64,000 nucleotides of DNA from Closterium sp. NIES-65 (taxonomy: Eukaryota; Streptophyta; Zygnematophyceae; Desmidiales; Closteriaceae). This document shows positions 1 through 60,275 of this stretch, piece by piece (the first letter of the stretch is position 1; every line of letters starts with the position of its first letter). The notes under the pieces are model-generated. The model saw only the letters and a program-made list of their open reading frames with translations, ran no database searches and was not told the origin of the DNA. The DNA is taken from assembly GCA_948144175.1 (NCBI GenBank), contig CANXME010002457.1:124001-188000 (forward strand), written 5' to 3'. Position numbers and translations under genes: made by a program.

Positions 1-3000
1 GGACAGAGAGCAACAAGGTTTTGGGGAAAGAGACATGGTAGAAAGAGGGAGAGGAGGAAGGTGGGGGGGGTGGGGGGGGAAGGGGGAGGGGGAAGGGAAG
101 GGGAGGGGGAGGGGGTGGTAAATAACAAAAACTGATACAATGCGAAGATAGAAATGAAACTGGTAAGAATATCCTTTACACATCGGTGTTGCCAAGTACC
201 CACCTTATGTTGATACTGTTGATCAATGTCTAATTTAAAACCAGGGGAGATGCTTTATCAGAATCACCTTATTTTGATACTGTTGATGCATGGCAATCTT
301 AAAATCCATCGAGTTTGTGATAATCAGCCAGCGCACTTCCAGGGGAGGGGGGAACCACCAGTCCTCCACTGCCTTGGGGGGGGGGGAGCATGGGCACAGA
401 GTGGGTGGGTAGGAGACAAGATGATGGAAGGAGGGGCGGTTAATCTAAGTTTGTGATAATCAGCCAGCGCACTTCCAGGGGAGGGGGGAACCACCAGTGC
501 TCCACTGCCTGGAAGGAAAGAAGCACGAGTCGAGTACGGAGCGGGCGGGTAGGAGACGAGTGTGGGAGGAAGAGGGCCACTATTGGAAGTTACCGCACTT
601 GCAGTTGAGGGGGGAACCGCCAGTGCTCCACTGCTTGTAAGGAAGCACCAGTACGGAGTGGGTGGGGAGGAGACAAGAGCGTGAGGGGAGGAGCAGCAGC
701 AGCTGTAGCAATTAGTGAAGCGACTGCTACAGCAGCCACTCTAGCAGTCAATGCAGCAATGTGCTGTTGCACGCACAGTATGAACCTACAGCGGTTGGGA
801 TGAGCAGCGCACCTGAGTGCAGCTCAGCAGCGCACCTGAGTGCAGCTCAGCAGCGGGCGGGCCACCTGCATGAGCCTCTCGACCTCAGCCTCGCCCAGCT
901 GCTTGGGAGCATCTTCGCCCTCCCCTGACGTGGTGCAATGCGGTGCAATGGGATGTGAAGGAATGGGATGAGATGGGATGGGATGGGATGGGATGGCATG
1001 AGATGAGATGGGACGGAATGGGATGAGATGAGATTGAGGCAAAGAATTATCATAAGCGACGTACAACAAGGCCTAAGCCATCCTCCCTCAGTGAGTGCGA
1101 CTCTTAGGAGGCACTTACTCAAGCACCCACTTACTCAAGGTTCACTCACTCACTCACTCATGTGGAAGAGCTACAGAAAAGGCATAGTACAGAAACGGCA
1201 TAGTACAGAAAAGGCATTGCATTGCCAAGAAGGAAAGAATCCTCACATGACATGGGCGTCAAAGCGAAATAGTTCATGCTGTATGATGTAGAAAGAAACC
1301 CTGCAATAACCTCGCTAAAATTTAGGACTCATGAGCACTATCACACCTGTTATAAACCACAAGAAGTACTTACCTCTCAGCTTGCTCCTTCCTAACAGTC
1401 ACTACGTTCTCACCTTTCCACGCCGCCCCATCAGTGAATCTGATGTGAACACAGATGGTCACCCACCCAGCCAAATCGTGAGCACGACACGTTCTCACAG
1501 GCACGACACGTTCTCACAGGCACGACACGTTCTCACAGGCACTACACGTTCTCACAGGCACTACACGTTCTCACCTTCCCACACCGCCCCATCAGTGAAT
1601 CTGATGTGAACGCCAGTAGTTACCAAGCCTGGTGCATGCACCTCCCTCTCCTGGTCCCTCACCTCCTTTTCCTACACTATGCTCTCAAGGCACGGAAATT
1701 TCACCTTCCCACACTGTCCCATCAGTGAATCTGATGTGAACGCCAATTGTCACCACACCAGGTGCATGCACCTCCCTCTCCAGGCCACTCAGAAGCTGCC
1801 GAACCTCTGCATTAGGTCTGGGAAGAAACATACGAAGGGGGGGGAGAGGGGAAGAGGGCGGGAAGGTGCCTTAGAATCCTGTCAGGGCAGGAAGTGAACA
1901 TGACTGTACAGTCGCCTTCTCATGGGATCGACTCTTCTCACAGAGAAGCAAAGTGGAAATGGCAGGAACCTTGGAACAGGGGTGTCAGGTGCATGCAGAG
2001 AAGCGCGAACCTGACTGTACTCATGTAATTGACTCATGAGGAGTCTACTCATGTAATTGACTCATGAGGAGTCTACTCATGTAATTGACTCATGAGGAGT
2101 CTACTCATGTAATTGACTCATGAGGAGTCTACTCATGTAATTGACTCATGAGGAGTCTACTCATGTAATTGACTCATGAGGAGTCTACTCATGTAATTGA
2201 CTCATGAGGAGTCTACTCATGTAATTGACTCATGAGGAGTCTACTCATGTAATTGACTCTTCCCATGATGCTATCTTCCTCTTACAGCCTCACTTGAGTA
2301 GGAAGCGCAGGATACAGCCAAGAGCGTACGGTGGGTGCAATGCAACGCAGCGGCTCAAAGACCCAGCCCTTGTCGCACTAATCCAAGCATTGTTTGCCTA
2401 GGTAGCTATCTGCCTCGTACAGCCTCACTTGAGTAGGAAGCGCAGGATACAGCCGAGAGCGTACGGTGGACGCAACCCGGTGGTGCGGAGCCGTGCCGCC
2501 CACTCGCTCTGCTCCTCCGTCAGCATCTGAGTCAGCACGCCGCGATTCCACGACAGCCTGACGTTGCGGAATTTGCTGTAGGGTGTGAAAGTCTCCTGTG
2601 CGGGGTTGAGGGGGTGTGCAGTCGTCTTTTAGAATTCGAAAAGTTGGCACATGACAACCTGACGCTGCACATGACAACCTGACGCTGCACATGACAACCT
2701 GACGCTGCACATGACAACCTGACGCTGCACATGACAACCTGACGCTGCAAATGACAACCTGACGCTGCGGAACCGGCCCATCTCCTTTTGAGGCGCCTAA
2801 GAAACTGACAAATTGAACGTCATCCACCCACCATTGCCTAGTTCTGAGTCGACTCAAAACTAGCCTCAGAAACTGACTAAGTGTGTGTCATCCAGCATTG
2901 CGTGTGTCCAGCATCGGCACATCATCCGACCCACGCCCATCTCTGCCTTTTGAGCCGACTCAAAGTCATCCAGCATCGGCACATCATCCGACCCACGCCC

Positions 3001-4632
3001 ATCTCTGCCTTTTGAGCCGACTCAAAGTCATCCAGCATCGGCACATCATCCGACCCACGCCCATCTCTGCCTTTTGAGCCGACTCAAAGTCATCCAGCAT
3101 CGGCACATCATCCGACCCACGCCCATCTCTGCCTTTTGAGCCGACTCAAAGTCATCCAGCATCGGCACATCATCCGACCCACGCCCATCTCTGCCTTTTG
3201 AGCCGACTCAAAGTCATCCAGCATCGGCACATCATCCGACCCACGCCCATCTCTGCTGCTTCTCTCTGCTCTGCTCCTGCCACCGTGCCGAAACGCGCGT
3301 ACGCTCGGTCTGTTGGATCTGAGTCGAATCTATTTTTCTCTCTGCTGCTTCTCTCTGCTCCTATCGCCATCACACCCAAGCACAATCACGCACCCACCTG
3401 CACGCTCCCGAACTGTGTGTCTCAAATGTCAAGCATCGGCACGTCATCCTCACCTATGCCCATCCCCTCCAACCGCATTCAACCATCATGCCAACCAAAC
3501 ACCCCACCCACCTGCACGCTCCAAAACTGCGTACCTCGGATGTCCAGCATCAGCACGTCATCCACGCCCATCTGCTTCTGTGCCCCGAATCACCGAGTCA
3601 TCCACGCCCATCCGCGTGTATGAAGATTTGTTTTGAGACGTCTCAAAACATGTCCAGCATCGGCACGTCGTCCACACCCATCTGCTTCTGTGCACCGACT
3701 CACCGAGTCATCCATGCCCATCCGGTTGCCACTACAACCAGGCAGGCACAGTCACAAGCACCACCCACCTGCACGCTCCCGAACTGCGTGTCTCGGATGT
3801 CCAGCATCGGCACGTCATCCATGCCCATCTCCTTTGTTTCCGGGCTGCCCGCAATTACCGACTCCGTCAAGATTTTCCGGGCAGGTACGAGCGGAATCTC
3901 ATCAATAGCCTCATCTGCCGCTGTGTCATTGCCAGAACCAGGGATGGTCAAGCCAGGGTCGTCGGATCCACGATCGGCCGAACCAGATGCTGACGTGGAC
4001 GGGAATCTCCAGTCGATAAGGTTCGGCTCGAAGGCGAATGGCAGGCAGCGGTGGCGAATCACCAGCGCGCGGCCGTCCAATAGCGCGACGACAAATGTCG
4101 AGGCCAGCCCTAGGAGCGTGTCGCCCAGGCCGCCGCAGCCATGGTACCACTCGTAGGTGAGGAAGCGGGGGAAGGCGGAGGGGGGCGAGGAGGGGGAGGC
4201 GGAGAAGGAGGCGGAAGGGGAGGGGGAGGAAGCAGGGGGAGCGGAGGACGATGGGGAGGGGGAAGAAAGGGAGCCCGGGGATGGAGCTGGGGAAGGGGAT
4301 GAGAGAAGGGGGTTTGATGATGGATGAGAGGATGAAGCTTCCTGGCTGTTGCTCCCTCTGATCCCTGCCCTTCCTGCTGTTTCGCGGCTGCTTCGTCTGT
4401 TTGCTGCTCGGATTTGCTCGTGCAAGGCGATGTACTCGCTATGCCATGACCCGCAAAGCGCTTCAGGGTAGCCGAAATGAAGGTCTGACGTGGACCGCGA
4501 ATGTTCTCCAGAGGCAGTGACTCCCAAAGAGGCTAAAACGAGAACTATTGTAGCGAAACAAGCTCTCGCCCATGGTCGAGAGGCGATTCGTCGCGTTTGT
4601 TCGCTGCACGCAGGCATTCTGGCGACCGGCAC
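1..4632 (-). CDS. Fucosyltransferase-like glycosyltransferase (GT37-type), multi-exon, 3' end unresolved
   Basis: Probable Golgi type II membrane glycosyltransferase that would transfer fucose or a related sugar to wall glycans. Exon 1 (4632 down to 3769, donor CAG|GTGGGT) starts MPVARMPACSEQ, has a hydrophobic anchor near residues 22-43 (ACFATIVLVLASLGV), a Ser/Pro-rich stem, then the motif CGGLGDTLLGLASTFVVALL with DGRALVIRH. This resembles the 'GLGNRxxxLxSAFLYALLTxRVLL' start of plant FUT catalytic domains. Further exons: 2575-2429, with VRLSWNRGVLT and PYALGCILRFLLK (FUT-like GCxxxFLF segment), and 924-836, with EVERLMQVARPLLSCTQ. Possible C-terminal pieces near 772-670 (VAVASL) and 380-315 (AVEDWWF...WLIITNS). 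Phases between exons 1, 2 and 3 do not join directly, so one or more exons are missing from my model. It is divergent from RLK1. Family call is moderate; the full exon chain is not solved. Confidence 0.55.
312..660 (-). repeat. Three partial copies of a putative FUT exon
   Basis: About 135-bp spaced copies at roughly 312-395, 446-515 and 590-660. Each reads on the minus strand as AVE(D/H)W(W/R)FPP.LEVR, and the outer two also continue into WLIITN. The G-rich tails differ in length. They look like duplicated pieces of one exon of the minus-strand glycosyltransferase; which copy is used is unclear. Confidence 0.5.
2021..2262. repeat. 28-bp tandem repeat, 8 full units
   Basis: Unit starts TCATGTAATTGACTCATGAG and is 28 bp. 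Full units run from 2021 and a partial ninth begins at 2245. Each unit holds GACTC-ATGAG-GAGTC, a 5-bp inverted repeat. It lies in a glycosyltransferase intron. A nearby segment (about 2285-2345) is a partial copy of the 3' half of exon 2575-2429, including its donor. Confidence 0.85.
2648..2767. repeat. 20-bp exon-derived minisatellite, 6 units
   Basis: Six units of CACATGACAACCTGACGCTG. On the minus strand the unit resembles the start of the neighbouring glycosyltransferase exon (CGCAACGTCAGGCTGTCGTG, about 2566-2547), differing at only a few of 20 positions, so it appears to be an amplified fragment of that exon just upstream of its acceptor. Confidence 0.75.
2899..3260. repeat. 62-bp exon fragment plus palindrome array
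   Basis: Five copies of TTTTGAGCCGACTCAAA, with the tgag at 2951, 3013, 3075, 3137 and 3199 (exact 62-bp period). They alternate with about 33 bp that on the minus strand matches the 3' end of glycosyltransferase exon 1 (MG(V/M)DDVPMLD region). The palindrome has one broken pair (GCCGAC). A degenerate relative of the palindrome also occurs at 2786-2800 and another (TTCTGAGTCGACTCAAAA) at 2842-2859. Confidence 0.85.
3400..3768 (-). repeat. Partial duplicates of FUT exon 1 end flanking a palindrome
   Basis: Intronic copies of the exon 1 3' end (minus-strand MGVDDVLMLDIRGTQF and variants) occur at about 3410-3440, 3525-3625 and 3650-3735. The last two are about 80-bp direct repeats separated by the perfect palindrome at 3631-3648. 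One copy keeps a donor-like GTGCAG|GTGGGT. Confidence 0.75.
3631..3648. repeat. 18-bp palindrome, ACGT core
   Basis: TTTTGAGACGTCTCAAAA, perfect. It lies at the junction of two ~80-bp direct copies of the glycosyltransferase exon/intron sequence. Confidence 0.9.
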
Positions 4633-6864: not shown

Positions 6865-8724
6865 ACACCCCCTCTCTCCCCCCCCAGCTCGGCCGCTCCA
6901 GGCGCTGAGCAAAGCGTGGCGGCTACCTCCGTTCGCTCCGCCTTTCACAAAACTCATTTCTCCCTCTTCACTCCCTCATCTACCCATCTCCCTCCCCGGT
7001 TTCCCCTCCCCTCTTCCTCCCCGGCCCCCAGTGCGGCCGCTACAGGCGCTGAGCAAGGCGTGGCGGCTACCTCCGTTTGAGCAGTGCGACTTGCGGGCTG
7101 GTCTCACGTGCGACGCGCAGGGCATGGTGACGCGCATGTGAGTAGTATTGGCCTCACGTGCGACGCGCAGGGCATGGTGACGCGCATGTGAGTAGTATTG
7201 GCCTCACGTGCGACGCGCAGGGCATGGTGACGCGCATGTGAGTGATGGCCTATGAATACCGAGTCATACAAGCATGGGAGGGGCATTTAAGGAGGACGTG
7301 AGGAGCATGTGAGTAGTATTGGCCTCACGTGTGACGCGCAGGGCATGGTGACGCGCATGTGAGTGATGGCCTACGCCATTCCTCGTCAAGTAAACACTGT
7401 TACATTTTTATATTTGTCCCTCACGCTCTCTCGCATCCTCTCTCTCTCGTTCTATCACCACCCCAATCCTTCCCGTGTCCCCTCTGCAGCAACCTAGCCA
7501 GTCGCAACCTCACTAGAATCATCCCCAAAGCGATCTCCGCTTTTGCCAGCCTCCTTCCCTCACGCTCTCTTATCCCCGTCTCCACCCCTTTCCCAATCCC
7601 TTCCATGTCCCCTCCGCAGCAACCTAGCCAATCGCAACCTCACTGGAGTCATCCCCAAAGCGATCTCCGCTTTTGCCAGCCTCACTAACCTGTAAGGCCG
7701 CAGCAAGCAACCAGCTTCCCCGACTTTTGAGGCGCCTCAAAAGCCGCAGCAAGCAACCAGCTTCCCCGTTACCCCCTTTCTCCACAACTGTCTTTCGTTG
7801 AGATCACGGTTACACAGTAATCGTGGATCAATTGTTACATAATCAGTATCCCCTTCCATCCCCGAAACCACCCCCCCTCATCCCTTCTCCTCCTCCTCCT
7901 CCCCTTCTTCCCCTCCTCTTCCCCTCTCCCTGTGCGTGTGTGCGTCCAGCTCGCTACACGACAACCACCTGTACGGGCACCTGCCTGATATGGGGAGGCT
8001 GAAGCTGCTGAGAGAACTGTGAGTGGCATGGGGCGGCATGGATTGGCATGGGGCGGCATGGATTGGCATGGGTTGGTTGGCATGCGTTGGCATGGGGTAG
8101 AGTGAGGTGGCATGGTGTGGCATGGGTCGGCATGGGGTGGCATGGTTTGGCATGGGGTAGCATGAGCTGTACGTATGCTTTCCCCCACCCGTGTATCAAT
8201 CCGCCCACTAATGCATGCATCCATCATCCATCATCCATCATCCATGCATCCATCATCCATGCATCCATCATCCATGCATCCATCATCCATGCATCCATCA
8301 TCCATGCATCCATCATCCATGCATCCATCATCCATGCATCCATCATCCATGCATCCATCATCCATGCATCCATCATCCATGCATCCATCATCCATCATCC
8401 ATCATCCATCATCCATCATCCATCATCCATGCATCCATGCATGCATGCACCCATGAGTGCAGATACCTACACGGCAACAATCTCAAAGGCGCCGTCCCTG
8501 CTTCCCTCAGCCTCCTCTCAAACCTCGAAGCTCTGTGAGTCATGCTTGACCTTTCCCCACATCCCCGCTACTCCCTTTCTACTCCCTTGTACCGCGCACC
8601 ACTCCATCCCTCTCCATTCCCCCCCACCACCACGTACCCTCGTGACCACGCCCTGTCATGCCGCAAACCCAACGCCCTGTCAGTATTTTCTAGTTGACTC
8701 ACTCAAACCCCCCCTTCTCCCCCC

Positions 8725-13700: not shown

Positions 13701-16159
13701 CGAGGAGGGTGGCGGGCAAGGGGTGGCTGTCTGCTGTCGCGCAGCGGGCCGAGGTCCCAGTTGGCGATGTCAGCGAAAAGGTCTTGACGTCTTGCCAGGA
13801 TGTCAGCGCTGATGATTGGGGCGGGGGTGGCAGGCGTTGGGCCCGCGTTACTGGCTGGGGCGGTGGTAACCGCAATGTTGGGGGCGGTTCGGTTTGGTCT
13901 CGCGGTCCGATTTCTGGGGGTTGGGGTTGCAGATGCGGCTCGGCCCAGGTTTGGGATTTGCCCCACACCTTCGGATCTGGTTTGGTTGGCAGGAACGCCT
14001 CGGGCACGTGGGCTGGGGACCTCCTCTCCTTGGAGTAGGCGATCCAACTCCTCGTCATCCTCCTCGACTTCAACCCCTAACAACCCCTCTCTTTCAGGGT
14101 TAAATAAGGGGTCCCCCTCGTCACTTCTCTCATTCTCCGTAGCCTCCTCAGCCTCCTCGCGAAGTTCCTCCTCGCCGCCTCTCGCGCTCTGACGTATCAG
14201 CCTCTCCGCGTTTCTCGCGAAGCCGCTGGCTCCTGTGCGGCGTCTGTTCGTGCCCCGCGCACCGCCGCCTCTCCGTCCCCGCTCGCTACCCCTTCGTCCG
14301 CGGCGACTGCCGCGTCCGACGCAGATTCCGCGCGTTGCTCTTGCTACTGCGACTCCCTCGCGCCCCGCCAGCGGCGCCGCGGTCGTCTCGCCTTCCCTTC
14401 GTCGGCGCGCTGGCATCTGCTGCGCTACGGTCGGGAGTGATGGACCCGTCCGCAAGACGGGATCCGGAGCTTGAGCATTCCGCGGAGAGCGCGCCGCGGG
14501 AGCCTGCGCCTGCCGAGACTCGGCCACGACTTCCTGCGCATCCCTCCGCAAGCGAGCCCGTTCACCGATTCGAGCGGGTGCAGACTCTTCCCCATCAGCC
14601 AGCCTCGCGCCTCTCCCCCCCTGAGTATTCGTGGGCTCCTGCGCGTGTAGCGTCGAACCGTCCTGACGGTCAGCAGCCGCAGCAGCGCGGGCGCTCGCCT
14701 CAGCGTCATCCCCAACGGCAGCCGTCTCCTCGTCGCCTATCTCCCGCGCGTCGCGAACACTATCAGCGCAGGGAGGGGGATCCGCGCTCCCCTGAGCGTC
14801 CTCGCTCTCCTCGGCGCCCGTCTCCTCGTGGTCGAGCAGGCCAGCGCTCACCCCGAGCGCGATCCCCCGCTCAACAATCACCTCGGCGAGCTCCGGCGAC
14901 GCGGGGGAAGGGGTCGCCTGGGCGTCGCTGGGAATCAGGTCGTCGCGAGCCGTCCCCTCCGCGTCCGAATTCGGGTGGTTCCGCTGGGCGGCGGGGCCGG
15001 CGGAATGGCGGAGGGCGCGGCTCATCTGGCCGCCAGCCGGATCCTGCTCTTGATCACGCTGCGAACACATTCGTGGATGTGGTGCGGCAGGCCCGGGCGA
15101 GCGGGGGGCCGACTCACGTTCACATCGAGGTGACAAATGGCCCTCCCTTTGCCGCGGATCCCGGCCCGGTGGCCCCACTGCGCGCGCCGATGTTGGCCGA
15201 GTATCTGCCCGCGCGGGTGGGGAGACCCGACTATCGCTCCCCTCGTCAGGTTCCTGGCTTCTCCGCTGGGTGCTTGACTGTTGGCCGCGTTCCTGGCTGG
15301 TCGGCGTCGTTTCCGCTCGAAGAGCAGACTGCACCTCACCCCAATCCCGTGGGGAGAGACCCCATGCTGACCATGTGCCGGATATTGAATCTGGCGGAGG
15401 CGTGCGAGGTGGTGGCGAACTTGCAGCTGGCAGTGTGTGGGGCCACCCGGAACTTTCCGAGCAGTTTCGGTCCAGGATCCCGAGGATCCTGCGTGACTTT
15501 GGCAGGATCGCTCGAGTCGCCGTTGGCGCCCGTGTCGGAAGCGCCCGCCGGGGTAGCTCCCTTAGCCCGTACTTTCCCCCGCCACGTGGGGGATCTTGTA
15601 GGGGCTGCTCAGGCCGGGACCCCCCTGGACGTGCTCCAGTCATCGGCGCATCTTCTTCTTGCGGTATCGGCGTGTATGCGCTCGATGCTTGAGATGGAGG
15701 GGGCGGAGCCGTACACGATGTAGGCCTCCGCCGCGTGTAATATTGCATGCCGTTCTCTCTTGCCTAGGCTCTGCTCCCTTGATTCCTGTGCATGCGTGTT
15801 TCTCCTGGAATAGCAGTCCACTGCCTTGTTCCTTGCCACCAGGAGCGCGCGGCCGAAGGCCGCGCTGGCGAGCGGCGGCGGCCGAAGGCCGCCGGCGCGA
15901 GCCGCCGGAAATGAACTCCACACGAAATAATGAGGAGGGGGAGAGAGAAACAGCCCTTAAATAGCTCTGGAGGGCGGAGGGCAGAGGGGTGAGGCAGAGG
16001 GCAGAGGGCTAAGGGGTATCCTCTCTCTCTCTCTCGCTCTCTCCCGCCGGAAATGAACTCCACACGAAATAATGAGGAGGGGGAGAGAGAAACAGCCCTT
16101 AAATAGCTCTGGAGGGCGGAGGGCAGAGGGGTGAGGCAGAGGGCAGAGGGCTAAGGGGT

Positions 16160-16258
<99 letters not shown>

Positions 16259-17951
16259 TCTCTTTTGTCCCTCCCACCCACCATCCACCGGCGCCCTATC
16301 CATCCTCACCCTTCTTGCCAGCTCCTTTTGCCGACCTGTCTTCTGTTTTGTCCCTTTGCGTCCTCCCTGCGCTGCGCCCCCCTTGTCTCGCACATCCCAG
16401 GCGGCTGGACAACAACGTGTTCTCAGGCGCCCTCCCTCCAACCATTTGCACTCTCTCCAACCTCACCGTTCTTGCCTTCTCTCCCTTTCATCCCTCTCCC
16501 TTTCATCCCTCTTCTTTCACCCCTTGGCAACTACCTCTTTTCCAGGCGGCTGGACAACAACATGCTCTCAGGCGCCCTACCGCCAACCATGGGCCTTCTC
16601 TCCAACCTCACCGTTCTGTGAGTCTTCTGTAACCTAGTGGCTACCGCGCAATCAGCAACCTACCTACTGCAACCAACCTACCTCCCCTCTCTCCCGGAGC
16701 ACTGCACTCCAACCAGCTCTCAGGTCCTTCACCGTCATGCTGGTTTCACTTATGAGGCGCCTCAAAAGCCTTCACCCGCCATGCTGGTTTGACTTACACA
16801 CCCGCTCTTCCTGCCCTCGCCCTGCCCTCTCCCTGCCCACCCTCTCCCACCGCTCTCAACCCCTGTTTTCCCCTCCACCCCGCCCCTCTCTCCCAGAGAA
16901 CTGCACTCCAATCAGCTCTCAGGAGCTCTGCCAGCCACGCTCGGAAAGCCTCTCCCTGCTGTCTCTCACCCGTTTCTCCCTGCTTACTCATATCTTCCTG
17001 TGGCCCTCTCCCACCTCTGTTTCCCCTCCACCCCGCCCCTCTCTCCCAGAGAACTGCACTCCAACCAGCTCTCAGGAGCTCTGCCAGCCACGCTCGGAAA
17101 GCTCTCCCTGCTGAAAGCACTGTAAGTTGACTTGACTGGAGGTACAGCAGCAAGGCACGGCCCCACTAATTTTAAAGACGTCTCAAAAAACCAGTATGGC
17201 GCACCTGTTTTACTGCCTTTTCTTTAGTGGTCTCTGGAATCGGATCGCTTCTCCCTTGCGGCTTGTAGTGAGTCGAGTTTTGAGTCGACTCAAAAGGACA
17301 AGACTCAAAACTCGACTCTCTGGAATCGGATCGCTTGTCCCGTGCGGCTCTTCTTTTGTTGCTCCTTACAGCGCGCAGCTTCTTGAGGCGCCTCAAAAAT
17401 CGTTTTTTTGGCGCCTAAAAAATTGTCTCTGGAATCAGATCGCTCGTGAATCGGATCGCTTGTGAATCGGATCGCTTGTCCCGTGCGGCTCGTCTTTTGT
17501 TGCTCCTTACAGCGCACAGCTTCTCTCCACCCGTGTTCTCTCGCCCTCCTCCCCCACTTGCCCTCCTCTCGCCCCATCCCACAGAACCATCAACGCCACA
17601 GCCCAGCCCTGCCCCGCCTCCTCGTCCCTCTGCCTAGTCTCCCAGTCCGCCTCGTCCTCCTTCTGCCACCTCTGCCCCGAGTTCTGCTCCTCCTGCGAGC
17701 CCCTTGAGGAGATGGCAGTAGAGAATGAGGGGGAGAGTGGGAGCGATGGCAACGGTGGTAGCGGTGGTGGGCTGAGCATGGCTGCAATCATTGCGGTGGT
17801 GTGCGGTTTTCTGCTCCTGCTCACGGCTGTGCTTGTGGCGTTCCTCGTGTGGTGCTGCTGTCGCCCAGGCTCCAACCCTTTCAAGCACGTTAAAGTTGTT
17901 GGTGAGTCTTCCCTTTGAGTGTTCCCTTCCTTCCCTGCTCCGGTCTTGCTG

Positions 17952-17998
<47 letters not shown>

Positions 17999-20900
17999 TC
18001 TGCTCCTGCTTCTGCTCTTGCTCACAGAGAAGCACTCACTCTCTTCCTCTCACTCCGTTTCATTCGCCCGTCTTCCATCCACCCCACCACCACTGCAGAC
18101 CAGGAGGAATTCGATGATGCGGGTCTGATCCCGTCGCTGTGCTGCCGCTACTCTCTGGTGGAGATCCGCCGAGCCACGGGCAACTGGAGCGAGGAGAACC
18201 GCATAGGCAGTGGGCAGCACAGCAACGTGTACAAGGGCACGTGCCCGTACAACCCCGCCAGCACGTGGGCTGTCAAGCGCTACAAGGAGCGCTCCACGCA
18301 CTTCGAGAAGGAGGTGCGTTGGGAAGGGCATAACCTGGTTACCAGGGGAGATAGAGAATGGATCTAGCTGGATAGACAGAGGGGAGGACAGAAACGTGTT
18401 GAAGGGCGTAACCTGGTTACCAGGGGAGGTACAGCAGGGTTATTAGCTGGATAGGTAGTGGGCAGCACAGCGACGTGCCCGTACAACCCCACCAGCACAT
18501 GGGCTGTCAAGCGATACAAGGAGCGCTCCACGCACTTCGAGAAGGAGGTGAGCGTTGGGAGAGCTGAGTGCATGTTGCCGAACCTGCTTCCGAACCTGCT
18601 TCTGAACCTGTTTCCGAACCTGTTGCCGAACCTGTTCCGGGATCTGTTGCCCATTCTCTTCCAATCACCCACCCCACCAGGTGGAGCAGATAGCAAGCAA
18701 GTGGCATCCCACCTTGGCCCACCTGCTGGGCTACTGCGTGGACTCAGACACGCGAGTTTTGAGACGTCTCAAAAGTCGTCTGTTGGGCTACTGCGTAAAC
18801 TCGGACGCGCGAGTGGAGGGCGGCAGGATGGTGCAGGGGGAGAGCAGAGCAGACCAGCTCACTCACCCCTGTGTTTGCCCCCTCGTGCCCTGTCCACTAC
18901 CCCCTCTCAAACCACACCAGGTGGAGCAGATAGCAAGCAAGTGGAGGGCGGGATGGTGCAGGTGGAGGAGCAGAGCAGATCAGCTCACCCACCCCTGTGT
19001 TCGCCCCCTTCCATGTACGCTGGTTGCCCATCCAATCACCCTCCCGAATCACCAGGTGGAGCAAATCGCAAGCAAGTGGCACCCGAATCTCGCCCACCTG
19101 TTGGGCTACTGTGCGGACTCAAACACGCGCGTGGAGGGCGGCAGGATGGTGCAGGTGGAGGAGCAGATCGGCTCACCCCCTACTCCTGTGTTCGCTCTGC
19201 CTGTACCCTGCTTGCCTCCCAACCAGGTGGAGCAAATCGCAAGCAAGTGGCACCCGAATCTCGCGCACCTGCTGGGCTACTGTGTGGACTCGGACACGCG
19301 GGTGGAGGGCGGCAGGATGGTGCAGGTGGAGGAGCAGATCGCAGTGTATGAATACGTGCACCACGGGGACCTCAGCCGCTACCTCTATCAAGGTTAGTGG
19401 CCTGTGTGACTGCCAGAAGTGATATTTCTCTAGTGCAGCAGCAGGTGCAAGGGAAGGGATGGTGCCGGTGGAGGAGCAGATTGCAGTGTATGAATACGTG
19501 CACCACGGGGACCTCAGCCGCTACCTCTATCAAGGTGAGCCATCACCGCATGCTATCCATTCCTGCAGTATCCTCATGGGCATGACGACCGCATGGTGCA
19601 TGCGTGGGGACCTCAAGCCCTTCTATGCGCCCTCTTCTTCCCTGTCTGATTGTGGCTCTCCCAGCAGAATCCTTCCGGGCGTCCTTTGCCCTGTGGGAGC
19701 GCGTGGACATCCTGATAGGCATGGCGCACGGGGTGCAGTACCTGCACTCGGTGGGCATGGTGCATGGGGACCTCAAGCCCGCCAACATCCTCATCGACAA
19801 GAGCTGGCAGGCCAAGGTCGCCAACTACGGGCTGCTGCAGCGCAACGAGCAGAGCGCCGTGAGCGCGGGAAAGCTGTTCGGCACCCCGGGATACGTGGAT
19901 CCTGTCTACCTCACGTCCCACATTGCCACCAAGGCCTCAGACGTGTTCAGGTGAGACTCCCGTAGGCGGCATGCATGTTGTAAAGGGGTGACATCTGGGG
20001 TGGGTGGGGTGGTCCTGGTGTGCTCTAGTGAGCTGGCAGGCCAAGGTGACCAATTACGGGCTGCTGCAGCGCAACGAGCAGAGCGCAGTGAGCGCTGGCC
20101 GGCTGTTCGGCACCCCGGGATACGTGGATCCTGTCTACCTGACCTCGCACATTGCCACCAAGGCCGCAGACGTGTTCAGGTGAGGCGGGGCTAGAAGGCG
20201 GGCTGGCTGTCTGTGTGAGGGTCACATGTGGGGTCGGGTGGGCGTGGGCGTGGGCGTGGGCGGGTGGGTGGGCGGGGTGAGCCTGCTCTAGCAGAGAGCT
20301 GGCCGGCCAAGGTCGCCAACTACGGGCTGCTGCAGCGGAATGAACAGAGCGCTGTCAACGCCGGGCGGCTGTTTGGCACGCCAGGATACGTGGACCTCGC
20401 ACATCGCCACCAAGGCCTCAGCCTTTTTCAGGTGATGCCCCACGTTGTGAGAGTCAGATGCGGGGTGGGTGGGTGGGTGGGTGGGTAGGGGCGGCCGTTG
20501 GTTTGAGCCGACACCTTACAAATGCTCTGCCCTTTCCCCCACCCCCTCTCCCCATTCGCACCATGCAGCTTCGGAGTCATCTTTCTCGAGCTACTGACAG
20601 GGCGGCCGCCGTTCATCCAGGTGCAGGCGGAGCACGGGGAGGACCACGAGCACATTGCAGACTGGGTGAGTGATGCTTGTTGAGTGGGCTGTGCACCGGG
20701 CTGAATATTGTGAGCATTGGGTGGGGGACATTGGGACAAGGGGCGGCCGCCGTTCATCCAGGTGCAGGCGGAGCACGGGGAGGACCACGAGCACATTGCA
20801 GACTGGGTAAGTGATGCTGGTTGTTCATTGCGTTAGAGTTACTGAGCAGTGGTTGGGAATACTGGGGCATGGGGCGGCCGCCGTTCATCGAGGTGCAGGC

Positions 20901-25800: not shown

Positions 25801-28800
25801 TTTGTGGGGCGATGGTGGTGGGTGGCAGGACATTGGATAGGGACGGCATCACGGGCTCCATCCCATCCACTATTGGCCAGCTCACTGCCCTCACCTGGTT
25901 GTAAGTGCTGATAGCTAGCGAGTTGCGAGTGTTGCTGATGAGTCGCGGGTGGGGTGATCGCGGGTGTGATGCTTACAAGTTAGTCGCAAGTCAAACGGTT
26001 GTGGCAGTGCGCGATGCTTCCCAATCGTGAGTAAATGAAGTGAACCTGTGTGAGTGCTTGGAAGACGCAGTGCAGTTTCTGTTCGCAAGCTTGTTTCTTT
26101 AGTTCCTACCCTTCTCAGCTTTAGGTCCCTTCCCGCTCCCCACCCATCAGCTCTATGGCTCGCAACAGCCTCACTGGCAGCTTCCCCAAAACCTTCACCA
26201 ACCTGGTCAATCTGAGAGACGTGTGAGTCAAGTCAAGTCAACGAAGGTCAACTACAGTCAAGTCAACGCAAGTCAATTCAAGTGATTTCAGTGCGAGTCG
26301 ACTCAATTCATGCGTTCACTTGTCTTTCCAGTCGGCTCAGCAGCAGTCACTTCGTGACAAGAGCACACTAACATTGTTTTCTGAGTCTTCTGAAGAAAAA
26401 AATTTCAGCATGAGGAAAGTGATCTTCAGACATAATTCTTAGGGAGCAGCAGTAGTGAAGCTAGGCTTAAAAAAGATTCAGCATGAGTAAGGCCAAGTCA
26501 ACTCACCTCTATCCTCCCCTCTTTCTTTCCTTCTCTCCTTGCCTCTCTCCCCACCTTTCTCTCCTTGCCCCTCTACTCCCCCCTCCTCTCCTTTCCTTTC
26601 TCCTCCCCTCCTCCCTCGCTCGATCCTCCATCGCAGCTCCCTCTATACCAACCAACTCAGCGGCCCCCTTCCCTCCTCTCATCCTCTCATCCCCTCTTCC
26701 AATCCCCTCCCCCCCCCCTCGCTCGATCCCCCAACGCAGCTCCCTCTATGCCAACCAACTCAGCGGCCCTCTTCCCGACTTCAGACTCTTTCGCAACCTG
26801 CTCCAATGGTGCAAAACCTTCCCTTCCGCAACCTTCTCTTCCAACGCGTTGCTGCTACTCAACAGTCGCGACACTGTACTCTACTCTACGCGCCTCTTCC
26901 CTTTCGCCTCTTCCCTTTCGCCTCTTCCCTTTCGCCTCTTCCCTTTCGCCTCTTCCCTTTCGCCTCTTCCCTTTCGCCTCTTCCCTTTCGTCTCTTCCCT
27001 TTCGCCTCTTCCCTTTCGCCTCTTCCCTTTCGCCTCTTCCCTTTCGCCTCTTCCCTTTGCCTCTTCCCTTTCGTCTCTTCCCTTTCATCTCTTCCCTTAC
27101 ATGGTTTCATTCTTTGTCTCTTCCTTCCCGACTCGTTGCTGCTACTCAACAGTCATGCTGCTATACTCACACATGCACAAGCATTGACTTACTGATCACA
27201 TACTTGTGTGCACGTGTGCTTGTACGTGTGCTTGTAATGGGTGTGCTTATGGGCAGGGGTTCATCGAGCAACAACCTAACAGGGTCTATTTCATCACATA
27301 TTGGCGACTGCTCAGGATTGATAGCTCTGTGAGTGACGTGAGGTAGCCCACGGCCATTTGAGCTTGCCTATAGCAGAGTGCGGTACCCGATGGTTATGTG
27401 CGGCAGCCTATGGTAGTGTGCGGTACTCGCTGGTTATGTGCGGTAGTTCACGGTCATGTGCGGTAGCCGATTGACCAATAAATCGTCCCATGGACATCTT
27501 GCCACGGCCCCAGAGCCTCCCAGCTACTTGCAATAAAAAAAATCTGTTTGGCAGCAGCATCGCACGCTCTGTTTAGAGGCGCCTAAACTAAGACTCTCCT
27601 GCCATTTTGAGGCGCCTCAAAATGCACCTCACTACGCTCTGTTTAGAGACGTCTAAACTAAGACTCTCCTGCCACCCCCCCCCTTTCCCCGCTCCCCCTC
27701 CCCCTCCCCCCTGTCTCCCCAAACATCCCAATATACCCACAGGTACCTGCAAGAGACTCCTTTTCCCCATCCGCCAGGCATTATTCCAGACTCTCCTCGG
27801 TTCAGAGTCGCCTAAAAATCAGATTCCCACACAACCCCTCACTCCCTCCCGCACCCCACCCTCCCCAACACCCCATACCCTTCCTGACTTTTGATTCGAC
27901 TCAAAAGTACCCTCCCGTACCCCACCCTCCCCAACAACCCATACCCTTCCCAGATACCTGCAGGAGACTCCTTTCCCCCTTCTGTCATGTCAGACATTAT
28001 TCCAGAGTCTGTCTTGGTTTGGGGTCGTCTCAAAGCCGGACTCAAGCACAACCCCCCACTCTCTTTCACACCCCACCCTCCCCAACACCCCGTATCCTTC
28101 CCAGGTACCTCCAGGACAACCATCTGTCAGGCAGCATTCCAGACTCCATCACAAACCTAAGGGGCCTCACACACGTGTAAGCGAGCAGGGCTGCACCCTG
28201 TGGGGCTCGCACAGCTATAGCCGTGGGTGATTTTCGAGTCGTCTCTAAGCTATCTGCAGGAGAACCATCTGCCAGGCAGTATTCTAGTCCAGAGCCCATC
28301 ACAAACCCAAGGGGCCTCACACACGTGTAAGCGAGCAGGGCCGCACTCTATGTGCCCCAAAATCTAGTAAACACTTCTATCCTCCTTCACGCCCCTCTAT
28401 CCTCCTTCACGAATCACACCCCTCTGTGCTCCTTCAAACCCCTCTATAACCCTTCATACCCCTCTATCCCCCTGCACACCCCTCTATCCTCCTCCGCAGT
28501 GAGTCACACCGTCCCACGCCTCTCCCCACATCTCTCTAACCAGCTCCTCACTCTGTCTTTAGAAAGCTCAAACGTCCACAATCTCCCCCCGTGCGCTGCG
28601 CCCCTCCCGCCCCTCCACCCCACCCCACTGCACCCCACTGGACCCCACTCCCCCCATCTCCACCCCACTCCACGCATCTCCACCCCACTCCACCCATCTC
28701 CACCCCACTCCACCCATGTCCACCCCACTCCACCCAACTCCACCCCGCTCCAGTGACCTTTCGTACAACAGTCTGTCTGGCAGCATCCCTTCCAATATTG

Positions 28801-31800
28801 GCACCCTCAGCTGGCTCACCTCCCTGTCAGTCACGTTTGTCAGATGAGTCGACCTTCGAGTCGTGCTAAAGGCCATTTCATAAGTTATTTTGAGTTGCAT
28901 CAAGAGGCAACCTGCGTAGGCTTACCTATCTCTGAGACACGTTCGTCTGCCACACCACACAAGAATCACAAAGAGCATTGTTCGTCACACTGAAGGCAGC
29001 CTTGCTCCCAATTCCAAGACATCTTTTTAAAACCATCTCTGAGACAAGTTCGTTATACTGGATTGAATTCTGAAATTTCTCAACAATCTCTTAAACCATC
29101 TCCCCCTCTACCTGCTTGTGTGTTTTCTCTTCTCACTCCCTCAACCCGCCTCTCCTCCCTCCCATTCTTCAGTGCCTTGCGCAAGAATCGCAACAGTGGC
29201 ATCATTCCGAATTCCACCACCACCCTTGCTTGTTCCCTTTCTCCTCCCTCGCACCGCCCCCCTCTCCCCCACATCCCCCCCACCCCTACCAGCTTATTGA
29301 ACAAGAATCCCATTCGTGGGCGGTTCCGGGATTCTATCACTGCCCAACTCTTGCTTGTTCCCTTTCTTCATCCCCACTTCCCCTACATTCCCCCCACCTC
29401 TACCAGCTCGTTGCACAAGAATCGCATTGGTGGCATTGTTCCCGATTCCATTACCACGATGCTCGCCTTGTCACACCTGTGCGTATACCAGCCACACACT
29501 CAAAACTCATCGCCTTGTTGCGTCTTTGCGTATACCACACCACTCTTTATTGGAGATGATAGTAGATTCAGCTGAAGAATCGCATCGGCGGCACCATTCT
29601 TGATTCCATTACCTTTATGCTCGCCTTGTCGCACCTGTGCGTATACCACACCACGGTTAATTAAAGATGTTAGTTGTAACGCACTAACTCAAAGAAGTAA
29701 CATGCTCATATGAAGATCTAACATTTGTAATCGAAAATACAATGTTGTAACATGCTTATTTGAAGACGTAACGCACTCACATGAAGATGTAATGCGTTCG
29801 CACATGAAAAGGTAATGCAGTCACCTGCCCTTGCCATCTCTCCTGCAAATTCTCTCTCCAAATGCACTGACCTCTCACAAAACCCTCTCTGCCTCTGCCC
29901 TGCATCCATCTTTCCCACACAGCGACCGATCGTGCAGCCAGCGCTCTGGGACCCAGAGAGAACGCCCTCTGTAGTATCAATTTCTCAGTCAACTCAAACA
30001 CTCTGATAAATGGGAGTTTTTGAGACGTCTGAAAAACTCCCTCGCATCACCCAGCGCTCTGGGACCCAGAGACAACCCATTCGCAATATCGGTTTCTCAG
30101 TCGACTCAAGAACCCCCCTCTGCTGTCCATCTGTGGCCGTATTCTGCGCCCCTCTATCAAACACAGCGACCTATCCTACAACCAGCTCTCTGGCACCCTG
30201 CCGGCCAACATCGGTAACCTTCAGAAGCTCGTCGACCTGTACGTGTATCCCCTCTCCCTCTTCCTAAGGTGCTCATACAAACAGGGGAAGCCTCATGCTC
30301 ATACAAACAGGGGAAGCCTCATGCTCATACAAACAGGGGAAGCCTCATGCTCATACAAACAGGGGAAGCCTCATGCTCATACAAACAGGGGAAGCCTCAT
30401 GCTCATACAAACAGGGGAAGGGTTCCTCCTCATACGCAAAAAGGTAAAACAAAAACAAACAAAAAAAACAAACAAAAAAAACAAACAAAACTCAATAGCA
30501 CCCTCCCAAGCCATCTTGCACGAGTGCCCACCACCTCTCCTATTGCTCAGTTTTCTGGGACCCTGCCATACAACATCAGTGACCCCCAGAAGCCCATTCA
30601 CCTGTACGTTGATTCCAACTCAAAAGCGAATCCCTCCCAAGCCAAGCCATCTTTCACGAAAGCCCCTATTGGCCTCACATCTCCTATGTTCAGCTCTCTG
30701 GGACCCTGCCTGCCCTGCAATATTGGTATATCATGTGTACCTGACCACAGACACCCGTCCACCTGTATGTGAATTCTTGCCATCTCATCCATGTGTGCTG
30801 TATCGTGTGTTCTCTCCCCCTTGTAGAAAGAAGATTTTTGAGACGTCCTACGTCCATCGTATCTACGTCTCTAAAATCTTCTTTCTACACGTGGTATTGT
30901 GTGTTCTCTCCCCCTTTCCCCCTCCAACCGCCATCCATCCCCCCTCCCCAGCTATGTTGGCAATACGGACATGCAAGGGAGCTTGCCCGAGACCCTTGCA
31001 ACAATGACCCTGTTTGGGATAAATTTTTGAGTCGACTTAGTTGTAGTTGCTTGCTGCGTCACTTGACCCACCCCTATCCCTCCCCAGCTACGTCGGCAAC
31101 ACGGACATGCAAGGGAGCTTACCCGAGACCCTTGCAACAATGACCAACCTCAAAACCTTGTAAGTAATGCACCACTTTGCATTTCTCCCTCTCTCGCAAC
31201 CCTGTAACCGTTGTCGCTCTGTTGGTATCCTTATTGAACGCGCCTTCCTCTTTATAGCTTTCCCATGCCATCACCCCATGCCATCACCCAATGCCATCAC
31301 TCCTTCTATCACCTCCTATCATCGCATCCACCACTGCAGGTCGTACGACGGACGGGCTGCTCATGTCGTGCCCCACAGGGCTCTGCACTTTTGATGCTGT
31401 CAACACCAGCTTTCACCCCCCTTTCCATCACCATCACCCCACCCATTACCGCAGGTCGTACGACGCGCTGCTCATGTCGTGCCCCACAAAGCCTTGTACC
31501 GTTGATGCTGTCAACATGCGCTATCTCACCTTATGCTCCCACCCCTCTTTCCATCATCAGCACCCCACACCTCACCGCAGGTCATACGACAGCCTGCTCA
31601 TGTCGTGCCCCACAGGGGGCGTGCACCGTTGATGCTGTCAACAGCACCCTCTTCTGCTCCGACTGTTTTGGAATGCGTCAAACATGTTACCCTACACCCT
31701 TTGATGTTATACCCCCCCACGGCAGATCGTATGACGGCCTGCTCATGTCGTGCCCCACAGGGGCATGCACCGTTGATGCTGTCAACACCACCCTCTTCTG

Positions 31801-34800
31801 CTCCGACTGCTCTGTCTTCTGCTCCTCTTGCGGTGCCACACCTGGTAATAGCAAGCAAGCAACCAGCCAACTACCTGCCAGCTACCGGGAAACTACCTGG
31901 GAACACCAACCTCTGTCTACCTGCCAAGCAAGCAACCTGCCACCAACCTGGCAGAACCTGGCAGGCCACAAACTTTCTTGCTTCCCTCTGACACATTTTT
32001 TTTTTTTTTTTTTTTTTAATATTTCTCAAATACCACTTGTTGCAGGTGGTTTTTGAGAATTCTAGAAATTTATTCAAAACCTGGCAACTAAGTCTCTTGT
32101 TTCACTCTTCCCTGCTCCTCTTCCCCCCACATCCGCTTCCCCCCACTTGACGTCCTCCTCTTTCTGCTCCCCCCCACCTCTTTCCCGCCAACCAGCGCAA
32201 CCCTCCTCTCCAGTCCCAGCCAGCCCTCCGCCCGCCCCTCCTTCCTCCCCCTCGCCACCTGCCCCTTCCCCTTCCCCCCCGTCCGCGGAGGGGGGAGGGG
32301 GGGTGTCGACAGGGGTGGTTGTGGGGGTGGTAGTGGGAGCAGTGGTGCTGTTGCTGGGAGTGGTGCTTGTAGCGGTGTGCTTGTATCAGAGGAAGCGCAA
32401 GGCAAGAGCAGCAGCAGATCAAGGTGAGTCAGAGAGAAAAGAAACAGAACCCGTGTGAAGGGGTGTGAAGGGGTGTGAAGGGGTGTGAAGGGGTAGGAGA
32501 CTGTTAGGCGCTTGCCGATTCATGAGGTGAGGCAGAGAGGAGGGTGAATGCTATCACAGGGCTAGAGCAGCAGCAGATCTGATTGAAGAAGGGTTTTGAA
32601 TGCTATCACAGGGCTAGATCAGCAGCAGATCTGATTGAAGAAGGGTTTTGAATGCTATCACAGGGCTAGAGCAGCAGCAGATCTGATTGAAGAAGGGTTT
32701 TGAATGCTATCACAGGGCTAGAGCAGCAGCAGATCAAGGTGAGGCAGAGAGGAAAGAAACAGAAGGGGTGAGAAGCGGTGTGAAAAGGGGGGGGGGGGGG
32801 GGGGGGGGGGAGGGGATGGTAGAAGATGATTAAGGAGCCTAGGGATTACTAAGGTGTTTGCCGATTCATAAATTGAGGCAGAGAGGAGGGGACATCTGAG
32901 AACCTACAGTGGCAGTGCTGCTCCCCCTGGGAACCTGCAGTGGCAGTGCTCATGCGTTACAGACCTTGGGGCACCTGAGATTTGAACAAGCTGCTATCAA
33001 CGATTATCTTACACCTTTTTGCCTCTCCTCCCCACCCTTCATCCCCCCCCCCTTCCCCCCTAAGCAGCAGCAGCGGCGGGGATATCTGGGGGCGGGCAGT
33101 GCCAGCGCTACCCCTTGGCGGACGTGCAGCGGGCGACCAACAACTGGGCAGAGGCCAACCGGATTGGCAGCGGCGGGTTCGGGGACGTGTTCAGGGGAGT
33201 GTCGCCTCACGACCCCTCGGTGCTGTGGGCCGTGAAGCGAGCCACCGTCATCACCAGTGACTTCCGCCGAGAGGTACGTGGAGTGGTGAGGTGCGGGTGT
33301 GGTGGGGTGTGGTATGGTGCAGTGCGGTGCAGTGTGGTGTGGTGCGGTGTGGTGTGGTATGGTGCAGTGCAATGCGGTGTACCACCCAGCTAGTGTGCAG
33401 TGGGTCTGGGGATGTGTTCAGGGTAGTGTTGCAAGATGACCCATCAGTGGTTGGGGCTGTGAAGCGAGCCACCGTCATCACAAGTGACTTCCGCTGGGAG
33501 GTGCGCGGTACGGTGTGGTGTGTTGCTGTATGGTGCGGTGCAGTGCGGTGTGGTGTGGTGTGGTGTGGTGTGGTATGGTGCAGGGCAATGGGGGTACCTC
33601 CTAGCTACTGTGCGGCGGGTTCGGGGATGTGTTCAGGGAAGTGTTTTCCCCACGACCCGTAGGTGGTGTGGGCTGTGAAGCAAGTCACCGCGATCACAGG
33701 TGACTTCCGACAGGAGGTGCGCTGTGGTGTGGTGCGTGGGTCTGACGCAGTTGTGTGTGGTATGGTGTCTCATGCACTCTCCTTCTCCCCCCCACCCCCC
33801 ACACCTCGCCCTCCCCCAACCCCTCTCTACCTACTCCCTCCCTCCCCCCTCCCACCACAGATCAACGAGATGGCGTCAAAGCACCACCCCAACCTCATGC
33901 CCTTCCCCCCCCCACCTCCTCTCCTTCCCGTTCCCTCCCCTTCCCCCCCTTTCCCCTCACCACAGATCAACGAGATGGCATCGAAGCACCACCCCAACCT
34001 CGTGCGGCTACTGGGCTACTGCATCGAGGTGGATAAGGCAGCTGAGAGCACGGAGCAGATTCTCATCTATGAGTTCATGGATAATGGGGATCTGGAGAGG
34101 TGGATTGGACCAGGTTGGTACAATGCCTGCTTGCGTTGCCTGTTGTATCGAAGGTGCTGCCTCTGAAGCACGGAGCGGATTCTCAGCTATGAGTTCAGCT
34201 GGATTAGACCAGACCAGGTGGGTGGGTGTTGCCCTACCCTATGGTGGGTGGTATGGCTGTTGGGCTGGGCTACTGCATCGAGGTGGACAAGGCAGCTGAG
34301 AGCACGGAGCAGATTCTCATCTATGGGTACATGGATAACGGAGGCCTCGAGAGGTGGATCGGACGAGGCGAGGTGCGTGACCGTATGGGTTTTTCAGGGG
34401 CCCGAGAAGGCATCTCGTGCCTCGAAGCACCTCAGTACTCGTCAATGAGTTGAGTTTATGGACAATGGAGCCCTCGGGAGGTGGAGTAGACAAGGTGAGT
34501 GGGTGCTGCGCCTTGCCTTTCCTTCCTGTGGGCTAAGCTGTGAATGCCTGCTTCTCACCATTTGATATGCTTCCTCGCGTCGCCTGCAGTGTGGAAGTGA
34601 TGCCACCACGGCATTTTCACCTGTCGTGCCTAGCACATTCTCGTTCTGCAACCCATCCATTCTGACTTGAGTGTTTGCATTGTCCTACAAGGTTACTTTT
34701 GAGTCGACTCAGAAGTCACTCCTGACTTGAGTGTTTGCATTGTCCTACAAGGTTACTTTTGAGTCGACTCAGAAGTCACTCCTGACTTGAGTGTTTGCAT

Positions 34801-38476: not shown

Positions 38477-60275
<21,799 letters not shown>

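What the first reader, a model, noticed from the sequence alone, without database searches (positions are those of the whole stretch)
7697..7768. A dispersed palindrome family sits at the junctions of local duplications
Read across the window, TTTTGAG-NCGN-CTCAAAA and close relatives occur at more than 30 separate sites plus the arrays. At nearly every one, the sequence immediately left of the palindrome is repeated immediately right of it. The cleanest case is here: 26 identical bases on each side of TTTTGAGGCGCCTCAAAA. Other junctions: 3631 (~80 bp), 16751 (~27), 17278, 18757 (~30), 27605 (39), 27889 (~39), 30013 (~60), 36389 (~55), 44603 (~45), 48449 (~33), 50406 (~70). The variable repeat length argues against a fixed-stagger transposase. 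It fits either a tiny palindromic insertion with long target duplications, or repair of staggered breaks that captures or builds a palindrome. I know of no described element of this kind, so it may be new.
Basis: partly seen in the sequence, partly recalled or inferred. Interest (0 to 1): 0.95.

Follow-up and report, generated by a model that had tools for sequence, protein, structure and literature searches.

The report
Mobile palindromes flanked by target duplications
The genome of a Closterium alga carries about 25,000 exact copies of a tiny palindrome, and at most of the copies examined the neighbouring DNA is repeated on both sides, as if a break had been patched with the same short sequence each time; no element I know behaves like this.

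Summary
TTTTGAGNCGNCTCAAAA occurs 24,964 times, exactly, in the window's own 874-Mb genome, against 0 for the reversed control. The organism is a Closterium alga. At 20 of 22 further loci, fetched without seeing their flanks, the flank is duplicated on both sides of the palindrome. Ungapped duplications run from 11 to 85 bp. Two paralogues in the window clearly show the empty state, one flank copy and no palindrome; a third does so in part. The window's arrays have the form A(pal A)n.

Inserts have a fixed centre (TCGA, ACGT, GCGC) and arms of variable length. Their boundaries show excess microhomology. One locus has six head-to-tail half units meeting one inverted unit. A transposase with fixed stagger does not fit.

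Best reading: staggered breaks are filled in, both ends receive the same short templated tail ending in a self-complementary 4-mer, and the tails anneal. This would work like telomerase-made interstitial repeats with another template. No template or enzyme was found, and arm counts partly favour a ready-made palindromic donor. The phenomenon is shown; the mechanism is inferred.

The parts
7697..7722 (.). left copy of the 26-bp target duplication
   Evidence: identical to 7743-7768
7725..7742 (.). palindrome TTTTGAGGCGCCTCAAAA, GCGC type
   Evidence: exact copy
7743..7768 (.). right copy of the 26-bp target duplication
2907..3256 (.). array A(pal A)n, 62-bp unit, palindrome with changed centre CCGA
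3540..3724 (.). 75-bp duplication (3540-3614 and 3650-3724) around ACGT-type palindrome 3631-3648
16726..16793 (.). about 24-bp duplication around GCGC-type palindrome 16750-16767 (approximate ends)
17231..17349 (.). 33-bp copies flanking a 53-nt insert that holds the TCGA-type palindrome 17278-17295 and further inverted copies
18723..18813 (.). 34-bp duplication inside a kinase-like coding stretch around ACGT-type palindrome 18757-18774
19215..19338 (.). empty paralogue of the 18757 site: one copy of the 35-bp flank, no palindrome
27564..27674 (.). 41-bp duplication around GCGC-type palindrome 27605-27622; each copy holds an older related palindrome (27572 with GGCGCC, 27642 with GACGTC)
27844..27950 (.). 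41-bp duplication around TCGA-type palindrome 27889-27906
29935..30109 (.). about 62-bp duplication (gapped) around ACGT-type palindrome 30018-30035 with arms GGGAGT/ACTCCC
30823..30893 (.). two ACGT-type half units in inverted orientation joined with an 18-nt filler; outer CACGTG at the right
34662..35528 (.). array A(pal A)n, 60-bp unit, TCGA type
36317..36496 (.). 56-bp duplication around GCGC-type palindrome 36421-36438 (left copy ends 48 nt before it)
49002..49262 (.). cluster of four palindromes with nested duplications, including the 28-bp GTGAC...GTCAC copy at 49081-49108
50336..50495 (.). 70-bp duplication (90% identical) reaching over a kinase-like exon start around ACGT-type palindrome 50406-50423
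51527..59798 (.). 8.2-kb array A(pal A)n, 50-bp unit, ACGT type, in a kinase-like exon; paralogous exon 59853-59951 is empty

Best explanation
The palindromes are patches made during repair of staggered breaks. Two nicks on opposite strands, some 11-100 bp apart, leave overhangs that are filled in, so the stretch between them is doubled. Each 3' end is then extended on a short template (probably RNA) whose copy ends TTTTGAG plus a self-complementary 4-mer: TCGA, ACGT or GCGC, perhaps AATT. The end aligns anywhere on the template by a few nt of homology and is copied to the template's end. The two identical tails anneal through the 4-mer and are sealed, which gives a palindrome of fixed centre and variable arms between two copies of the target. 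Unequal exchange between the copies later makes arrays A(pal A)n. Shown: palindrome, duplication, empty state, fixed centre, variable arms, microhomology, compensated centre, head-to-tail half units joined to one inverted half unit. Inferred: the nicks, the fill-in, the template and the enzyme, which would act like telomerase on broken ends.
For: Variable duplication length (16-85 bp, median 31, in the 31 sites; 11 and 13 bp at two more; about 100 bp gapped at L003). Empty paralogues: 18757 against 19215-19338, and the 51527-59798 array against 59853-59951; for 50406 only the right side of the exon at 36106-36253 aligned. Constant centre with varying outer ends. Excess microhomology: of 34 junctions, >=2 nt in 11 against 3.1 expected, p 1.3e-4 (two first-of-array values dropped, 12 further junctions uncountable because they lie outside the known arm, and the loci picked by the 28-mer left out). 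L023:1468, where the target supplies TTTTG and CTCA and only AGACGT is new. L057: six TTTTGAG half units head-to-tail, 17 nt apart (the first partial, two of the five joints TTGA instead of TCGA), then TCGA, then one inverted unit. Half units begin and end with the same 4-mer: TCGA in L057; for the ACGT type CACGTG stands exactly 12 nt outside the half unit in 6 of 31 arms (5 distinct hexamers, two cores with one change). Window 30823-30893: two ACGT half units joined by filler instead of annealing. The full arm CGAGGTGACTTTTGAG not followed by C at the expected place is rare, 76+87 genome-wide; many of those listed have TCGA and then a changed base. In the 280,414 bases held, TCGA-type tail-to-tail joints number 89 (<=1 mismatch, arrays and overlapping loci included, most loci chosen for it), head-to-tail 5 (all in L057), head-to-head 1 (<=2 mismatches, in the LINE frame). 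Detection of the duplication falls as the palindrome decays.
Against: No template RNA, reverse transcriptase or endonuclease was identified. Counts of the GTGAC arm on the TCGA type are 2,276 and 2,338 one-sided; the two-sided 28-mer numbers 1,054 for any NCGN centre, 49 of the first 50 listed being TCGA. With about 13,000 TCGA copies (26 of the first 50, extrapolated; the direct count did not complete), independence predicts about 410. The excess of two-sided copies favours a two-armed donor, although arrays inflate these counts. Several loci (L042; L035 and L036; window 30018) are palindromic in arm sequence that differs between loci, which requires both tails to come from the same template variant. 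One ACGT-type head-to-head joint was seen (L035). Head-to-tail units could arise by later slippage. 16 of the 34 junctions show no microhomology, and some inserts carry extra bases that fit no arm.
Confidence: 0.45

Rival explanations
1. A ready-made palindromic DNA or hairpin (36 bp for the TCGA type, about 54 bp for the ACGT type), excised or copied from existing elements, is captured by end-joining at staggered breaks whose overhangs are filled in. Its ends are nibbled before joining.
For: Both arms are present together more often than independent tails predict. L047 carries the complete 36-bp palindrome. Locus-specific arms remain palindromic (L042; L035).
Against: L057 with six head-to-tail half units against one inverted; L038 with different arms on its two sides; L023:1468, where both target ends overlap the inside of the palindrome; two half units with filler at 30823-30893.
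Confidence: 0.27
2. Target-primed reverse transcription of a very short hairpin RNA by a LINE-type machinery, giving variable target duplications and truncated inserts.
For: Variable duplication lengths and microhomology suit target-primed reverse transcription; a LINE-like frame with a reverse transcriptase domain lies in the window.
Against: No body or tail is seen beside the palindrome and its arms in the typical insert; the end stretches of the one LINE read show GA repeats and nothing like the palindrome; the constant point is the centre, not one end.
Confidence: 0.13
3. A minimal cut-and-paste transposon (two inverted ends and nothing between), moved by a transposase in trans.
For: High copy number, inverted repeats, empty sites.
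Against: Duplications from 11 to 85 bp; most copies lack part of one or both arms. DDE transposases make duplications of fixed length and need both ends (established knowledge).
Confidence: 0.05
4. The palindrome was there first and causes duplication of its neighbourhood by replication slippage.
For: Palindromes are known to be unstable (general knowledge), and arrays grow here.
Against: The empty paralogues have neither palindrome nor duplication; single sites have two copies of the flank but one palindrome at the join.
Confidence: 0.07
5. Assembly or library artefact.
For: The motif is short and always at a join.
Against: Copies of many duplications have diverged, in some by nearly 20%, arrays show their own mutations, and an identical second copy of the 7725 site lies on another contig.
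Confidence: 0.03

Closest known systems
Interstitial telomeric sequences inserted at double-strand breaks by telomerase (Nergadze et al. 2007, PMC2246262; outline and found passages seen)
   Same: A short templated sequence is added at break ends, 1 to 8 nt of microhomology at the break is common, and empty orthologous sites exist.
   Different: There the insert is telomere repeat and duplication is a minority outcome (4.6% of 130 rodent and 16% of 25 primate events in the passage seen). Here the insert is a palindrome not known to be telomeric and duplication is the rule.
Tandem duplications from fill-in of staggered breaks (Schimmel et al. 2021, PMC8355091, abstract and outline seen; patch-mediated repair in rice and paired nicks in Arabidopsis, recalled)
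   Same: Small tandem duplications from breaks with complementary overhangs.
   Different: No constant palindrome is set between the copies, as far as the abstract says.
Short palindromic repeats of Volvox and other green-algal organelles (PMC2670323, PMC7235400; search listing only) and mobile DNA of yeast mitochondria (PMC4478555; listing only; GC clusters recalled)
   Same: Small dispersed palindromes, apparently selfish.
   Different: Those are organellar; the copies here lie in a large, gene-bearing nuclear assembly and carry long variable duplications.
REPINs of bacteria (PMC3116915; search listing only)
   Same: Short dispersed mobile DNA with palindromic parts (recalled).
   Different: Bacterial and linked to a RAYT transposase (recalled); I know of no such duplications there.
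MITEs (general knowledge)
   Same: Inverted repeats, high copy number, no coding capacity.
   Different: Fixed duplication length and longer bodies.

Membership tests
MITE / DDE transposon | target duplication of fixed length | tested here: not met
   16-85 bp in 31 sites; 11 and 13 bp at two more
MITE / DDE transposon | both terminal inverted repeats intact | tested here: not met
   against the 36-bp TCGA-type palindrome, one or both arms are short at most sites
SINE / LINE copy | element body with a defined 3' end or tail | tested here: not met
   typical inserts are palindrome core and arms (the test admits at most 36 nt). A few inserts are longer and hold further palindromes or unexplained bases (17231-17349; L043, L047; L055)
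SINE / LINE copy | variable target duplications | tested here: met
Telomerase-made interstitial telomeric sequence | insert equals the species' telomere repeat | not tested
   the Closterium telomere repeat was not determined; three-fold TTTAGGG and TTTTAGGG (<=2 mismatches) absent from the 280,414 bases held
Telomerase-made interstitial telomeric sequence | microhomology between break and insert | tested here: met
   >=2 nt at 11 of 34 junctions against 3.1 expected
Telomerase-made interstitial telomeric sequence | head-to-tail repeats of the template | tested here: inconclusive
   clear in L057, few in the listing
REPIN/RAYT | RAYT transposase gene in the genome | not tested
   no search made
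Fill-in tandem duplication | single copy in the empty allele | tested here: met
   two paralogous exons clearly, a third in part; paralogues, not alleles

The most novel reading that the evidence does not exclude
Closterium has a dedicated, telomerase-like activity that caps or mends staggered breaks by adding a short non-telomeric tail to both ends. The tail ends in a self-complementary 4-mer, so any two tailed ends fit each other. The mark left behind, a palindrome between two copies of the target, has been made thousands of times and has seeded part of the genome's tandem-repeat content.
Probability: 0.3. Interest if true: 0.93.

Novelty: categorically new. Interest (0 to 1): 0.8.

Why it matters
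If the tail model is right, this is a general adaptor for joining broken DNA ends that leaves a readable scar, in an algal relative of land plants. It would also give a direct route by which satellites are born: a single palindrome between two copies of a flank becomes an array A(pal A)n. The scars are datable and countable, so break positions, overhang lengths and repair in a natural genome could be read directly. If the donor model is right instead, it is among the smallest mobile DNAs I know of, without a recognisable transposition mechanism. Closterium strains that mate with each other differ in the copy number of about 30% of genes (PMC10407611, abstract), so the system could be tested in living crosses.

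Tried and rejected
LINE in the window as source: the end stretches read (521 and 601 bases) lie in GA repeats and show nothing like the palindrome. Rfam at gathering scores: no match in the window. Viral contigs: GACTTTTGAGNCGNCTCAAAAGTC has 0 matches. Empty allele by genome search: the 7560-7900 region has one further full copy, 100% identical, on contig C1052, so it is not informative. A one-sided arm hypothesis (one fixed, one truncated end), suggested by loci picked from the 28-mer list, was not borne out: two-sided arms are commoner than independence predicts. Isolated half units: of the 163 half-arm hits about 100 are listed, many with TCGA and then one changed base, as in mutated palindromes; of the three opened one is a mutated palindrome between 56-bp copies (L055), one looks like a degenerate palindrome (L056) and one is the tandem L057. 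A first control with satellite-rich random loci was useless; it was looked at per locus and redone without satellites. The best-alignment test finds only 14 of 22; at L033, L035, L036, L037, L043 and L052 the ungapped tests find the duplication. Palindrome mismatches and duplication identity do not correlate among detected cases (rho -0.02, 59 cases). NIES-64 protein P0003 carries the kinase stretch of the 50406 site once, but splicing to the second copy would give the same, so it does not decide. One search was a script with a syntax error, rerun. Not answered, hence not known: counts of GKTGACTTTTGAGTCGACTCAAAAGTCAMC (discordant arms), CACGTG-N12-TTTTGAGACGT, head-to-head AAGTCACCTCGAGGTGACTT, and the TCGA-type total.

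Full report
What was given. A reader saw TTTTGAG-NCGN-CTCAAAA at many places in the window, each between two copies of the neighbouring sequence, with 7697-7768 as the cleanest case.

The observation. It is exact at the given place. The pattern has 208 hits with at most two mismatches in the window (arrays included) and none in 100 shuffles. The genome in which the window lies has 874,075,685 bases in 2,400 contigs; it holds 24,964 exact copies, the reversed control none. With four free central bases there are 30,327, the control 4, so about 82% have CG in the centre. The other centres in the capped listing include TTGA/TCAA and ACAT, which look like decayed CG, AATC, and AATT, a further self-complementary 4-mer. 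Of the first 50 sites listed, 26 have TCGA, 14 ACGT, 10 GCGC and none CCGG (counted by hand).

Organism. An open frame at 47154-48170 matches proteins of Closterium sp. NIES-64 (100% over 44% and 15% of the query) and Naga37s-1. The assembly size fits NIES-65 (876 Mb) in table 1 of PMC10407611 (abstract, section 7 and found passages seen). The strain is inferred. That main text does not contain 'palindrom'.

The duplication. With one ungapped test, score >=11 was reached at 18 of 29 window sites and 20 of 27 sites in other loci, against 110 of 693 random window positions and 54 of 880 random positions in non-satellite loci (inner array units of the window dropped, four units of one L009 array still counted). 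The genome is rich in tandem repeats, so the background is not zero. Of the 22 loci L033-L054 (14 picked from the list, 8 from the 28-mer list, chosen for standing alone and without sight of flanks), 20 reach 11 in at least one; L039 and the central site of L046 do not. alone gives 14 of 22, against 3 of 462 mismatched flank pairs and 124 of 1,100 random positions. Detection falls with decay of the palindrome: 36 of 42, 10 of 15, 8 of 14, 5 of 18 for 0, 1, 2 and 3 mismatches; among the 59 detected cases identity does not correlate with mismatches. Fifteen of the 59 duplications are letter-perfect, so some events are probably young.

Empty sites. The window holds paralogous exons. For 18757 the paralogue at 19215-19338 has one copy of the 35-bp flank and no palindrome; for the 51527-59798 array the paralogue at 59853-59951 is empty. 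For 50406 the exon at 36106-36253 aligns with the right side only, so this third case is weaker. Duplication and palindrome therefore appear to arise together. The three palindrome arrays read in the window begin and end with the flank and have the palindrome between units, A(pal A)n.

Anatomy of the insert. The centre is fixed and the outer ends vary. The TCGA type has arms that can reach CGAGGTGAC on both sides (L047, 36 bp perfect). GTGAC on one side is found 2,276 and 2,338 times; on both sides 1,054 times for any NCGN centre. The ACGT type has another arm: CACGTG stands exactly 12 nt outside TTTTGAGACGT, without mismatch, in 6 of 31 arms (5 distinct hexamers; two of the cores have one change). 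By my reading of that output the 12 bases vary but keep AG in the middle. The GCGC type shows no clear arm consensus beyond the first base (11 sites). The half unit of the TCGA type begins and ends with TCGA and that of the ACGT type with ACGT. L057 shows six half units head-to-tail, 17 nt apart (the first partial, two of five joints TTGA), then TCGA, then one inverted unit. At 30823-30893 two ACGT half units are joined by an 18-nt filler. At L023:1468 the target itself supplies TTTTG and CTCA and only AGACGT is new. Some inserts are longer than the usual and hold several palindromes or unexplained bases (17231-17349; L043 and L047; L055).

Junctions. Among 34 junctions in sites not chosen by the 28-mer and with two first-of-array values dropped, microhomology of at least 2 nt is found in 11 against 3.1 expected (p 1.3e-4) and of at least 1 nt in 18 against 10.2 (p 0.004). 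Twelve further junctions of those sites lie outside the known arm and could not be counted. The boundary is defined by the longest possible duplication, and the expectation allows 0.3 per base.

Mechanism. Variable duplications, truncated arms and microhomology speak against a transposase with fixed stagger. The fixed centre, the same 4-mer at both ends of the half unit, unequal numbers of half units on the two sides, and ends primed inside the element suit two tails copied from one template and joined by annealing. In the 280,414 bases held the TCGA type shows 89 tail-to-tail, 5 head-to-tail (all L057) and 1 head-to-head joint, most loci having been chosen for the first. The known case closest in working is telomerase adding repeats at breaks, with microhomology and sometimes target duplication (PMC2246262, outline and passages). 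Fill-in of staggered ends as a source of small tandem duplications is known (PMC8355091, abstract). The counter-evidence is the excess of two-sided arms and the palindromic, locus-specific arms of some sites, which suit a ready-made palindromic donor. I put 0.45 on tails and 0.27 on a donor.

Novelty. Eight searches of the paper library, for Closterium with palindromic, for Closterium repeats, for palindromes with target duplications, for palindromes with filler DNA or paired nicks, for fill-in and patch-mediated duplications, for short palindromic repeats in Volvox-like organelles and for interstitial telomeric insertions, listed no nuclear element of this kind among the titles and abstracts shown; most subscription papers are not in that library. 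I rate it categorically new as an element, while its likely mechanism would be a relative of known templated repair.

Noticed in passing
window 10882-15763, minus strand: A LINE-like open frame with a reverse transcriptase domain (Pfam RVT_1), set between GA dinucleotide repeats.
   Followed up: partly
window 51527-59798: An 8.2-kb, 50-bp-unit array lies within a kinase-like exon; the gene may need to splice around it or be dead.
   Followed up: partly
window 27572 and 27642: Within the two copies of one duplication an older palindrome differs by two matched changes, GGCGCC against GACGTC, so its symmetry was kept.
   Followed up: no
window 7560-7900 and G000:C1052:108936-109276: The region has a 100% identical second copy on another contig, in line with the duplications reported for these strains (PMC10407611).
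   Followed up: no
L035 (G000:C9:117415-117832): Two ACGT-type elements stand head-to-head sharing one CACGTG, perhaps one inserted at the end of the other.
   Followed up: no
L043 and L047: Inserts holding two or three palindromes in a row, as if copying had restarted on the template.
   Followed up: partly
window 2018-2259, 23080-23502: Other arrays made of GAGTC/GACTC words that resemble pieces of the palindrome.
   Followed up: no
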